A stretch of DNA of 64,000 bases from Paraoerskovia sediminicola. Its GTDB lineage: Bacteria > Actinomycetota > Actinomycetes > Actinomycetales > Cellulomonadaceae. Numbering within the stretch: position 1 is the first letter of the stretch; each line of letters begins with the position of its first letter. Under the pieces are notes generated by a model. That model had not been told where the DNA came from. It saw nothing but the letters and a program-made list of their open reading frames with translations, and made no database searches. This document shows positions 1-3,766 of this stretch, piece after piece. Where the stretch lies: the NCBI RefSeq assembly GCF_030296575.1, contig NZ_AP027729.1, positions 434,001 through 498,000 on the forward strand, read 5' to 3'. The translations under genes and the position numbers were made by a program.

Positions 1-110
1 TTCCAGGGCCGGACCAGGCCGCACTCCCGCCACAGCGAGACGACCTGCTCGACGTCCGAGTCCTCGATGTCCGTGATCGCGACGTCGGTGAGCTCGACGG
101 GCACCGTCAC
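1..110 (-). CDS. GNAT family acetyltransferase, N-terminal fragment
   Basis: Only the first 36 codons are present; the gene runs off the left edge. The translation starts VTVPVELTDVAI and contains LWRECGLVRPW, which resembles the beginning of YpeA-type GNAT N-acetyltransferases (L-W-x-x-C-x-L-x-R-P-W). The acetyl-CoA binding motif lies outside the window, so substrate and activity cannot be judged. The GTG start overlaps the stop of the upstream guaB3 gene in a GTGA arrangement, which fixes the start and suggests translational coupling. Family assignment is by recognition of this N-terminal motif only. Confidence 0.6.
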   Translation of the reverse strand, partial: MTVPVELTDVAITDIEDSDVEQVVSLWRECGLVRPW

Positions 111-1230
111 CGCGGCTGGTAGGGCGAGATCACGACCTCGACCCGCTGGAACTCCTTGAGGTCGGAGTACCCGGTCGTGGCCATCGCGCGCCGCAGGGCG
201 CCGACGATGTTGAGGGTGCCGTCGGCCTGGCGACCGGGACCGAAGAGGACCTCCTCGAGCGTCCCGGCCGTCCCGACGCGGACACGCTCACCACGCGGGA
301 GCTGCGGGTGGTGCGCCTCGGGGCCCCAGTGCCACCCCTGCCCGGGGGCCTCCTCGGCGCGCGCGAGCGCGGCACCCAGCATGACGGCGTCGGCGCCGCA
401 GGCGACGGCCTTCACGAGGTCGCCGGAGTGCCCGACCCCCCGTCGGCGATGACGTGCACGTACCGGCCGCCGGACTCGTCGAGGTAGTCGCGGCGCGCCG
501 CCGCGACGTCCGCGACCGCGGAGGCCATGGGCGCGTGGATGCCGAGCGAGACACGCGTGGTGTGGGCGGCCCCGCCGCCGAAGCCGACGAGGACGCCCGC
601 GGCGCCCGTCCGCATCAGGTGCAGCGCGGCGGTGTAGGTCGACGCACCGCCGACGACCACCGGCACGTCGAGCTCGTAGATGAAGCGTTTGAGGTTGAGC
701 GGCTCGGCGTTGCCGGAGACGTGCTCGGCGGAGACCGTCGTGCCGCGGATGACGAAGAGGTCGACGCCCGCATCGACCACGCTCTGGTAGTGCTCCTGCG
801 TGCGCTGCGGCGAGAGCGCCCCGGCGACGGGGACGCCCGCCGCGCGGATCTCGCGCAGCCGCTCCGTGATGAGGTCGGGCTTGATGGGCTCTGCGTAGAC
901 CTGCTGCATGCGGCGGATCGCCTCGGTGGGCTCGAGGTTCGCGATCTCCGCGAGGATCGGCTCGGGCGACTCGTACCGGGTCCAGAGGCCCTCGAGGTCG
1001 AGGACGCCGAGCCCGCCGTGCCGGCCGAAGTCGATCGCCGTCGCGGGGCTCATCACCGAGTCCATCGGCGCCGCGATGATCGGCAGCTCGAAGTGGTAGG
1101 CGTCGATCTGCCACCCGACGGACACGTCCTTCGGGTCGCGGGTGCGCCTCGAGGGCACCACCGCGATGTCGTCGAACGAGTAGGCACGACGCCCACGCTT
1201 GCCTCGGCCGATCTCGATCTCGTTGCTCAC
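107..1230 (-). CDS. guaB3: GuaB3 family IMP dehydrogenase-related protein (frameshifted in this sequence)
   Basis: TIM-barrel protein of the IMPDH/GMPR superfamily, about 374 aa when the reading frame is restored; cellular role of GuaB3 is not firmly established. It lacks the CBS pair found in GuaB. The N-terminal part (VPSRRTRDPKDV, PIIAAPMDSVMSP) runs to VIADGG; the rest (VGHSGDLVKAVACGADAVMLG to the end) is in another frame. One C lost from the six-C run at 436-441 explains the break. The loop that carries the catalytic Cys in GuaB (GSICTTR) reads GAAHTTR here, so Cys is absent, as I recall for mycobacterial GuaB3. GTG start; a TAGGCT hexamer lies six bases upstream. Confidence 0.85.
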
Positions 1231-2122: not shown

Positions 2123-2198
2123 CGAAATATCACGGACGGCATGGGATCGTCGGCAGATGTTGTGAAGGAGGCCCGAGACACGCCTGAGACCATGTCAT

Positions 2199-2218
2199 GT
2201 ATCTCATCGCTGAGATAC
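2199..2218. promoter_or_regulatory. palindromic operator upstream of the XRE-MurA fusion
   Basis: Perfect inverted repeat: GTATCTCA (2199-2206), four-base spacer TCGC, TGAGATAC (2211-2218). The right arm overlaps the putative -10 hexamer TACGGT at 2216-2221 and the palindrome fills the -35/-10 spacer. The downstream protein begins with an XRE helix-turn-helix, so autoregulation by that domain is the simplest inference. Confidence 0.6.
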
Positions 2219-2221
2219 GGT
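2216..2221 (+). promoter_or_regulatory. -10 element of the XRE-MurA gene (leaderless)
   Basis: TACGGT ends six bases before the ATG at 2228. No Shine-Dalgarno sequence is visible, in keeping with a leaderless transcript. It overlaps the right arm of the 2199-2218 palindrome. Confidence 0.5.
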
Positions 2222-2227
2222 GCCGCC

Positions 2228-3766
2228 ATGACGATCACCGAAGAGGCTCCGCAGCACCTCGCCCAGGTCGGCGCACTGATCCGCGGCGCGCGCCAGCACC
2301 AAGGTCTGACCCAGGCCCAGCTCGCCGACCGCTTGGGCACGAGCCAGAGCGCCGTGCACCGCATCGAGCAGGGCGCCCAGAACATCAGCCTCGACATGCT
2401 CGCCCGCGTCAGCGACGCGCTCGCGGCCGACATCGTCACGATCGGCGCGCCCAAGCACGCCCACCTGCGGGTGACGGGCGGCCAGACGCTCTCGGGGGCG
2501 ATCCGGGTCAACTCGTCGAAGAACGCCGCCGTGGCTCTGCTGTGCGCGTCGCTGCTGAACCGCGGTCGCACGACCCTCCGCGACGTGGCGCGCATCGTCG
2601 AGGTCGACCGCATCCTCACCGTGCTCCGCAGCATCGGGGTCAGCACGAGCTGGTCGCCGAACGGGCGCGACCTCGTGATCGTCCGGCCCGCGCACCTCGA
2701 CCTCGACGCGATCGACGCCGACACCGCGCGCCGCACCCGCTCCATCATCATGTTCCTGGGCCCCCTCCTCGGCCTCGAGGACACCTTCGCCCTCCCCTAC
2801 GCCGGCGGCTGCGACCTGGGGACCAGGACCGTCGACCCGCACATGAGCGCGCTGCGCCACTTCGGGCTCGAGGTGACCGCGACCTCGGGCAACTACGACG
2901 GCACCGTCGACCGCACGCGGGGGGACATCACCGTGGTGCTGACGGAGCGCGGGGACACCGTCACCGAGAACGCGCTCATGGCCGCCGCGCTCCACGACGG
3001 CGCCACCACGATCCGCAACGCGAGCCCGAACTACATGGTCCAGGACCTCTGCTTCTTCCTCGAGCTCCTGGGCGTGCGCATCGAGGGCATCGGCACGACG
3101 ACCCTCACGGTCCACGGCGTCCAGGAGATCGACACCGACGTGGAGTACGCCGTCTCGGAGGACCCGGTGGAGGCGATGAGCCTGCTCACGGCAGGAGTCG
3201 TCACGGGCTCCGAGATCACCGTCCAGCGCACGCCGATCGAGTTCATGGAGATCGAGCTCACGACGCTCTCCGAGATGGGTCTGCGCTACTCGCTCTCGGA
3301 CGAGTACGTGGCCCGCAACGGCCGGACGAGGCTCGTGGACATCACCGTGCACCCGAGCGAGCTCGTGGCCCCGCGCGGGACGATCCACCCCATGCCGTTC
3401 CCCGGGCTGAACATCGACAACCTGCCGTTCTTCGCCGTGATCGCCGCGTGCGCGACCGGAAGCACCCTCATCCACGACTGGGTGTACGACGGCCGGGCGA
3501 TCCACCTCACCGACCTCACCCGCCTGGGCGCCAACGTACGGCTGCTCGACTCGCACCGGCTCGACGTCACGGGCCCGACCCGCTGGTCCGGCGCGGAGGT
3601 GAGCTGCCCGCCGGCGCTGCGCCCCGCTGTCGTCATCCTGCTCGGCATGCTCGCGGCCAAGGGGACGTCCGTGCTCCGCAACGTCGACATCATCGCGCGC
3701 GGCTACGAGGACCTGGCGGCCCGCCTGCGCGAGCTCGGTGCGCAGATCGAGACGTTCCGGGACTGA
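2228..3766 (+). CDS. XRE helix-turn-helix fused to UDP-GlcNAc 1-carboxyvinyltransferase (MurA-like)
   Basis: 512-aa two-domain protein. Residues about 10-68 form an XRE HTH (LIRGARQHQGLTQAQLADRL, TSQSAVHRIEQG). Residues about 75-510 match MurA, which transfers enolpyruvate from PEP to UDP-GlcNAc in the first committed peptidoglycan step. Conserved MurA residues are present: Lys-Asn in NSSKNAA, Cys and Arg in GGCDLGTRTVDPHM, Asp in NIDNLPFF, and ARGYEDL near the C-terminus. The Cys rather than Asp at the active-site loop predicts the fosfomycin-susceptible form. The upstream ATG at 2141 is rejected because it would read through the operator. It may be an active second MurA, a sensor of cell-wall precursors, or both. 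Confidence 0.88.
   Translation: MTITEEAPQHLAQVGALIRGARQHQGLTQAQLADRLGTSQSAVHRIEQGAQNISLDMLARVSDALAADIVTIGAPKHAHLRVTGGQTLSGAIRVNSSKNAAVALLCASLLNRGRTTLRDVARIVEVDRILTVLRSIGVSTSWSPNGRDLVIVRPAHLDLDAIDADTARRTRSIIMFLGPLLGLEDTFALPYAGGCDLGTRTVDPHMSALRHFGLEVTATSGNYDGTVDRTRGDITVVLTERGDTVTENALMAAALHDGATTIRNASPNYMVQDLCFFLELLGVRIEGIGTTTLTVHGVQEIDTDVEYAVSEDPVEAMSLLTAGVVTGSEITVQRTPIEFMEIELTTLSEMGLRYSLSDEYVARNGRTRLVDITVHPSELVAPRGTIHPMPFPGLNIDNLPFFAVIAACATGSTLIHDWVYDGRAIHLTDLTRLGANVRLLDSHRLDVTGPTRWSGAEVSCPPALRPAVVILLGMLAAKGTSVLRNVDIIARGYEDLAARLRELGAQIETFRD

What the first reader, a model, noticed from the sequence alone, without database searches (positions are those of the whole stretch)
2199..3766. MurA-like enzyme fused to an XRE repressor domain with its own palindromic operator
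The protein keeps the MurA residues I can recognise (Lys-Asn, Cys, Arg, Asp) yet starts with an HTH. A perfect GTATCTCA-N4-TGAGATAC palindrome overlaps the -10 of its own promoter. It may sense PEP or UDP-GlcNAc through the enzyme fold and control cell-wall genes, making it a trigger-enzyme candidate. XRE-MurA fusions are annotated in actinobacteria but I know of no described mechanism.
Basis: partly seen in the sequence, partly recalled or inferred. Interest (0 to 1): 0.7.

Follow-up and report, generated by a model that had tools for sequence, protein, structure and literature searches.

The report
A cell-wall enzyme repressing its own gene
Across many soil actinobacteria an enzyme for the first step of cell-wall synthesis carries its own DNA-binding head and a matching binding site on its own promoter; since it is the only such enzyme in some species, it is probably both a working enzyme and its own gene's repressor.

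Summary
Window 2228-3766 encodes a 512-aa protein: an XRE HTH fused to a full-length MurA fold. A perfect GTATCTCA-N4-TGAGATAC palindrome (2199-2218) covers the -10 of an apparently leaderless promoter.

Orthologues (60-87% identity) occur across Actinomycetes, including Streptomyces, where synteny identifies the gene as murA2/SCO5998. In 170 of 184 orthologues with the standard recognition helix the operator core is present (at least 7 of 8 bases). It is essentially found nowhere else in the genome.

HTH and operator co-evolve. A Ser-to-Gly change in the recognition helix goes with a symmetric ATCTCA-to-AACTCA change (4 of 4, once within a genus). Where the HTH decayed or was deleted, the operator is gone.

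Seven genomes, including Rarobacter faecitabidus and Piscicoccus intestinalis, have this protein as their only MurA homologue. Across the order, 40 of 88 carriers lack a detectable canonical MurA, against 2 of 209 non-carriers. Main catalytic residues are invariant, but UDP-GlcNAc-binding loops are remodelled.

Best reading: an active MurA isozyme that represses only its own gene. Control of other cell-wall genes is not supported; ligand sensing is plausible but untested. New variant of the trigger-enzyme kind; I found no description of its HTH or operator.

The parts
2228..3766 (+). XRE-MurA (MurA2-type) CDS, 512 aa, apparently monocistronic (dnaQ-like gene upstream ends at 2122; guaB downstream is convergent)
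2264..2443 (+). XRE helix-turn-helix domain, residues about 13-72; recognition helix contains T38-S39-Q40-S41-A42
   Evidence: PF01381/PF13560 over cut-off; helices H9-24, H29-36, H40-47, H55-65 in the AlphaFold2 model
2462..3757 (+). MurA-fold enolpyruvyltransferase domain, residues 79-510
   Evidence: model aligns to solved MurA structures with Z about 46, rmsd 2.0-2.2 over about 414 residues
2199..2218 (.). self-operator GTATCTCA-TCGC-TGAGATAC
   Evidence: conserved upstream of orthologues
2216..2221 (+). -10 element TACGGT, overlapping the operator, six bases before the ATG (leaderless)
   Evidence: sequence; TANNNT conserved in 158 of 178 orthologues
2192..2197 (+). possible -35 element ATGTCA (4 of 6 to TTGACA, spacer 18); weak
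   Evidence: sequence
2127..2132 (+). possible auxiliary half-site ATATCA, exactly 74 bp (about 7 turns) upstream of the main half-site
   Evidence: ATCTCA at exactly -74 in 12 distinct orthologues, against 11 occurrences at all other distances together; full second palindromes 74 bp upstream in G135 and G040
2519..2524 (+). codons K98-N99 (E. coli MurA K22-N23)
2810..2812 (+). codon C195 (E. coli MurA C115, the fosfomycin-reactive Cys)

Best explanation
The gene encodes a catalytically competent MurA isozyme (PEP + UDP-GlcNAc enolpyruvyl transfer) with its own XRE-type repressor domain. The HTH, most likely as a dimer, binds the palindrome over the -10 of its own leaderless promoter and blocks RNA polymerase, so the enzyme limits its own synthesis. 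It regulates essentially only itself. Inferred from comparative sequence evidence: HTH-operator pairing, self-only regulation, and MurA activity (from the lineages where it is the only MurA homologue). Inferred without a direct test: repression rather than activation (from the position over the -10), dimerisation, and coupling of DNA binding to the state of the active site (substrate, PEP adduct or inhibitor bound), which would make it a trigger enzyme that raises its own supply when the enzyme is occupied or inhibited.
For: Operator conserved at the promoter of orthologues 60-87% identical: core CTCA-N4-TGAG complete in 132 and at least 7 of 8 in 170 of 184 distinct orthologues with an SQSA helix. 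Operator tracks the gene, not the neighbourhood: guaB/dnaQ neighbours in cellulomonads, aconitase in Streptomyces. Presence by genome: 49 of 52 carriers against 8 of 98 non-carriers (Fisher p about 3e-27). Co-evolution: SQGA helix with AACTCA-N4-TGAGTT in 4 of 4, against 1 of 184 with SQSA (p about 1e-7); genus g88 holds both states (L284 SQGA/AACTCA, L293 SQSA/ATCTCA); degenerate HTH in genus g50 (L267, L272) and deleted HTH in G337 (L286) have no operator. Enzyme: an exhaustive PF00275 search finds only AroA plus XRE-MurA in G007, G031 (= Rarobacter faecitabidus, G714), G047, G300, G367, G632 and G717 (Piscicoccus intestinalis) (AroA typing); six of these checked for murB all have it. Order-wide 40 of 88 carriers lack the canonical MurA against 2 of 209 non-carriers (p about 2e-22). 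Main catalytic residues invariant.
Against: No binding, activity or expression data. Substrate-side residues differ from canonical MurA and are shared by all XRE-MurAs compared (P121-V-D-L to T-[VI]-[DE]-P, K160-V-S-V-G to ERGDT, E188/E190 to N/M, R232 to P, D369 to P), so substrate preference could differ. TIGR01072 scores below its cut-off (297 vs 393 bits). For most of the 40 genomes lacking the canonical MurA, an E. coli-type MurA (as found in Klenkia, L247) was not excluded. The operator is degraded or shifted in some lineages (Curtobacterium, Rarobacter, f6, parts of f13). Genomes within a lineage are not independent, so p-values overstate the evidence.
Confidence: 0.8

Rival explanations
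1. Plain autogenous control without sensing: an active MurA isozyme whose HTH only keeps expression constant (negative autoregulation by protein amount), with no influence of ligand on DNA binding.
For: The operator is essentially self-only. HTH and catalytic domain are joined by a short low-confidence linker (residues 70-75, pLDDT under 50). Lineages that lost the HTH (G337, genus g50) kept the MurA domain.
Against: MurA undergoes large open/closed changes on substrate binding (established knowledge), and the architecture parallels BzdR, where an enzyme-derived domain does gate DNA binding (PMC3602430). Nothing here tests it.
Confidence: 0.4
2. A sensor that has lost catalysis: the MurA fold only binds a ligand (as BzdR lost shikimate kinase activity), and the protein is purely a regulator.
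For: Remodelled UDP-GlcNAc loops, D369 and E188/E190 replaced; in Streptomyces and in this genome a canonical MurA is also present.
Against: Only MurA homologue in seven searched genomes, six of which were checked for murB and have it; a regulator with a single target, itself, would regulate nothing else; catalytic Lys, Asn, Cys, Asp and Arg invariant.
Confidence: 0.08
3. An enolpyruvyltransferase with another substrate (as NikO acts on UMP), autoregulated, with peptidoglycan precursors made another way in the lineages without canonical MurA.
For: Conserved differences in the UDP-GlcNAc-binding loops; deep branch apart from canonical and E. coli-type MurA; NikO is a recognisable relative.
Against: No other MurA-like protein in seven searched genomes; no known alternative to MurA for UDP-MurNAc.
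Confidence: 0.1
4. The palindrome is the site of another regulator (for example BldM in Streptomyces) and the HTH acts elsewhere or not at all.
For: Streptomyces murA2 is a BldM-WhiI target and SCO5998 has a SigB-dependent promoter (PMC4125116, PMC8346170).
Against: BldM consensus TCACcCgnncGgGTGA and TGnnCCGnnCGGGTGA do not match ATCTCA-N4-TGAGAT; the operator changes and is lost together with this protein's own HTH.
Confidence: 0.04

Closest known systems
Streptomyces murA2 (SCO5998 / sven5810 / vnz_28735)
   Same: Same orthologous family by inference: about 70% identity over the full length, HTH and operator included; divergent from aconitase, matching the SCO5998-SCO5999 arrangement (PMC12161575). 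Known as a BldM-WhiI developmental target (PMC4125116), SigB-dependent (PMC8346170), predicted DmdR1 target (PMC12161575).
   Different: The papers found treat it simply as a second MurA; none of the passages read mentions the HTH, the operator or autoregulation. The S. coelicolor and S. venezuelae sequences themselves were not read here.
Canonical MurA (EC 2.5.1.7)
   Same: Fold and main catalytic residues.
   Different: N-terminal XRE domain; 26-35% identity; nucleotide-binding loops remodelled; separate deep branch.
BzdR/BoxR regulators (XRE + shikimate-kinase-like domain)
   Same: XRE domain fused to a shikimate-pathway-type enzyme fold, binding sites at its target promoter (PMC3602430).
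   Different: BzdR lost enzyme activity and controls catabolic genes; here activity seems kept and the only target is itself. It resembles the synthetic Q1 chimera (active shikimate kinase + BzdR DNA-binding domain) of that paper, but natural.
Trigger enzymes / autogenous repressor enzymes (PutA, BirA, NadR; from general knowledge)
   Same: Metabolic enzyme that also binds DNA.
   Different: No described member found that is a peptidoglycan-precursor enzyme; single self-target; ligand coupling not shown.

Membership tests
MurA | EPSP synthase/MurA inside-out alpha/beta barrel fold | tested here: met
   AlphaFold2 pLDDT 87; Z about 46 to MurA structures, 41 to NikO, 37 or less to AroA
MurA | Catalytic Lys22, Asn23, Arg91, Cys115, Arg120, Asp305, Arg331, Arg371, Arg397 | tested here: met
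   invariant in the window protein and 15 orthologues aligned to E. coli MurA
MurA | UDP-GlcNAc loops and Asp369 as in canonical MurA | tested here: not met
   ERGDT, N/M and P replacements shared by all XRE-MurAs compared
MurA | NCBIfam TIGR01072 equivalog cut-off | tested here: not met
   297 vs 392.7 bits; subfamily model NF006873 is met, 313 vs 297
MurA | Able to be the organism's only MurA | tested here: met
   seven searched genomes with only AroA + XRE-MurA; genomic inference, not an assay
MurA | Enolpyruvyl-UDP-GlcNAc formation | not testable with these tools
   needs enzymology
XRE-family autorepressor | XRE HTH over the family cut-off | tested here: met
   PF01381 47.7 bits vs 23
XRE-family autorepressor | Conserved palindromic operator over its own promoter, co-evolving with the recognition helix | tested here: met
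XRE-family autorepressor | Protein binds the operator and represses | not testable with these tools
   needs EMSA/footprint/reporter
Trigger enzyme | Catalysis plus DNA binding in one protein, with DNA binding governed by enzyme ligands | not testable with these tools
   first half supported by inference; ligand dependence untested
BzdR/BoxR family | Shikimate-kinase-like C-terminal domain | tested here: not met
   C-terminal domain is PF00275, not a P-loop kinase
Streptomyces MurA2 (SCO5998) | Full-length orthology and synteny of the Streptomyces member with aconitase | tested here: met
   about 70% identity over the full length; acn divergent next to it in many Streptomyces loci

The most novel reading that the evidence does not exclude
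[quoted passage not shown] In some lineages this is the sole MurA, so wall-precursor supply there would be governed by one self-sensing protein.
Probability: 0.4. Interest if true: 0.85.

Novelty: new variant of a known kind. Interest (0 to 1): 0.68.

Why it matters
MurA commits carbon to the cell wall and is the target of fosfomycin. Its control is known mostly at the protein level (feedback, proteolysis, CwlM; from general knowledge). Here the enzyme appears to control its own gene through a fused DNA-binding domain, with a conserved operator that can be tested directly, in Streptomyces (murA2, a developmental gene) and in species where it is the only MurA. It would also be a natural counterpart of the enzyme-with-DNA-binding-domain intermediate that was built artificially to explain the origin of BzdR.

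Tried and rejected
A regulon beyond the gene: exact and near-exact operator scans in 150 family genomes and 12 Streptomyces/other genomes gave essentially only the self-site plus scattered one-offs. The idea that the operator decays where the protein is the sole MurA: rejected, most such genomes keep it; decay is lineage-specific. Klenkia marina as a sole-MurA case: rejected, its extra PF00275 hit is an E. coli-type MurA (L247, 45% identity to E. coli MurA). BldM as owner of the palindrome: consensus does not match. Rfam RNA in the leader: none at gathering threshold; the gene looks leaderless anyway. PADLOC hits are generic HTH matches only.

Full report
Observation. The CDS at 2228-3766 encodes a 512-aa protein with an XRE HTH and a full-length EPSP-synthase/MurA domain. 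The palindrome is at 2199-2218, is perfect, and is unique in window and genome with up to 3 mismatches. It overlaps TACGGT, which sits six bases before the ATG; a TANNNT element 5-8 bases from the start is found in 158 of 178 orthologues with a recognisable operator. The AlphaFold2 model (pLDDT 87, pTM 0.79) gives a four-helix HTH domain, a short uncertain linker and a MurA fold (Z about 46 to MurA crystal structures).

Distribution. Full-length orthologues are in 52 of 150 genomes of the family (12 of 25 genera) and 88 of 297 of the order (33 of 94 genera), and outside the order in Streptomyces, Kitasatospora, Nonomuraea, Klenkia, Geodermatophilus, Blastococcus, Actinopolymorpha and others. 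Presence is patchy but the protein is highly conserved. In Streptomyces it lies divergently next to aconitase in many loci. This matches SCO5998 (MurA2)/SCO5999 (AcnA) (PMC12161575), so the family is inferred to be Streptomyces MurA2: a BldM-WhiI target (PMC4125116) with a SigB-dependent promoter (PMC8346170). Paper searches found no description of its HTH, operator or autoregulation; the library holds open-licence papers only.

Operator. ATCTCA-N4-TGAG[AT]TA is found directly upstream of orthologues from cellulomonads to Streptomyces. Among 184 distinct orthologues with the SQSA recognition helix, the CTCA-N4-TGAG core is complete in 132 and at least 7 of 8 in 170. Neighbour genes differ between lineages, so the site follows the gene. 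In the family scan, 49 of 52 carriers have an exact site at the gene, one carrier (G047) has a further site elsewhere, and 8 of 98 non-carriers have stray sites. Streptomyces genomes have one exact site, at the gene, apart from one genome with a second. The strict regulon is therefore the gene itself. A second ATCTCA exactly 74 bp upstream occurs in 12 distinct orthologues, against 11 occurrences at all other distances within 150 bp, and full second palindromes occur in G135 and G040; the window has ATATCA there. Two sites about seven helical turns apart suggest cooperative binding or a loop; this is inference.

Co-evolution. Three kinds of natural change link this HTH to this site. Where the helix reads SQGA the operator is AACTCA-N4-TGAGTT in both halves (4 of 4, three genera), against 1 of 184 with SQSA; genus g88 contains both states. 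Where the HTH has degenerated (genus g50, L267 and L272) or been deleted (G337, L286) no operator remains. This is strong comparative evidence for HTH-operator recognition. It is not a binding experiment.

Is it an enzyme? The canonical MurA is present in nearly all family genomes (145 of 150), but order-wide it is undetected (E up to 1e-60) in 42 genomes, 40 of which carry XRE-MurA; only 2 of 209 non-carriers lack it (the cross-count of the two lists was made by hand and agrees with the tool tallies). Because an E. coli-type MurA, as in Klenkia (L247), could escape that query, PF00275 was searched exhaustively in 24 genomes and the hits typed. G007, G031 = Rarobacter faecitabidus, G047, G300, G367, G632 and G717 = Piscicoccus intestinalis contain only AroA-type proteins and XRE-MurA. 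Six of these were checked for murB and have it; G300 was not checked. G062 of the Rarobacter group shows the same but is 81% complete, and one fragmentary hit there was not typed. Since no other route to UDP-MurNAc is known, XRE-MurA most likely supplies MurA activity there. All main catalytic residues are invariant, while the uridine/diphosphate loops and D369 are changed in all XRE-MurAs compared, in sole-MurA and dual-MurA species alike, which suggests one shared chemistry with a remodelled substrate pocket. The lineages that lost HTH and operator keep the MurA domain, so catalysis and DNA binding are separable.

Mechanism and confidence. HTH recognition of its own -10 operator: about 0.93. 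Active MurA: about 0.85. Both together: 0.8. Coupling of DNA binding to active-site state: about 0.4, untested. Repression rather than activation is inferred from the overlap with the -10.

Relation to known systems. It works like an autogenous-repressor enzyme or trigger enzyme, and parallels BzdR (XRE + shikimate-kinase-like domain), in which the enzyme domain has lost activity; the active fusion Q1 in that work was synthetic (PMC3602430). Here the active fusion appears to be natural, widespread and retained.

Limits. No biochemistry; genomes within a lineage are not independent, so p-values overstate the evidence; the literature library is incomplete.

Noticed in passing
window 107-1230 (- strand), C run at 436-441: The guaB3-type IMP dehydrogenase gene is split by an apparent frameshift at a CCCCCC run, probably an assembly error (genome completeness 87.6%).
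   Followed up: partly
G000:C1 about 2515700 (L004, L005): The canonical murA of this genome is also split by an apparent frameshift, intact in three congeners; probably an assembly error, otherwise XRE-MurA would be the sole MurA here too.
   Followed up: partly
G713 (Klenkia marina), L247: An E. coli-type MurA (45% identity to E. coli MurA) instead of the usual actinobacterial MurA, alongside XRE-MurA.
   Followed up: partly
genus g7 genomes, e.g. G049:C2:283334-283349: An additional exact operator palindrome about 205 bp downstream of the main one, inside the coding region, in all g7 carriers listed; possibly a second repression site or coding constraint.
   Followed up: no
L296, L298, L302, L306, L307, L309, L311, L312, L315 (family f6): The operator has drifted towards weaker forms such as AGCTCA-N4-TGATAT, with an altered HTH (QSA[VI]ARMEQG).
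   Followed up: partly
G254, G293: Two order genomes in which neither canonical MurA nor XRE-MurA was detected at the thresholds used.
   Followed up: no
L267 and L272 (genus g50), L286 (G337): XRE-MurA with a decayed or deleted HTH and no operator, in genomes lacking the canonical MurA: natural reversions to a plain enzyme.
   Followed up: yes
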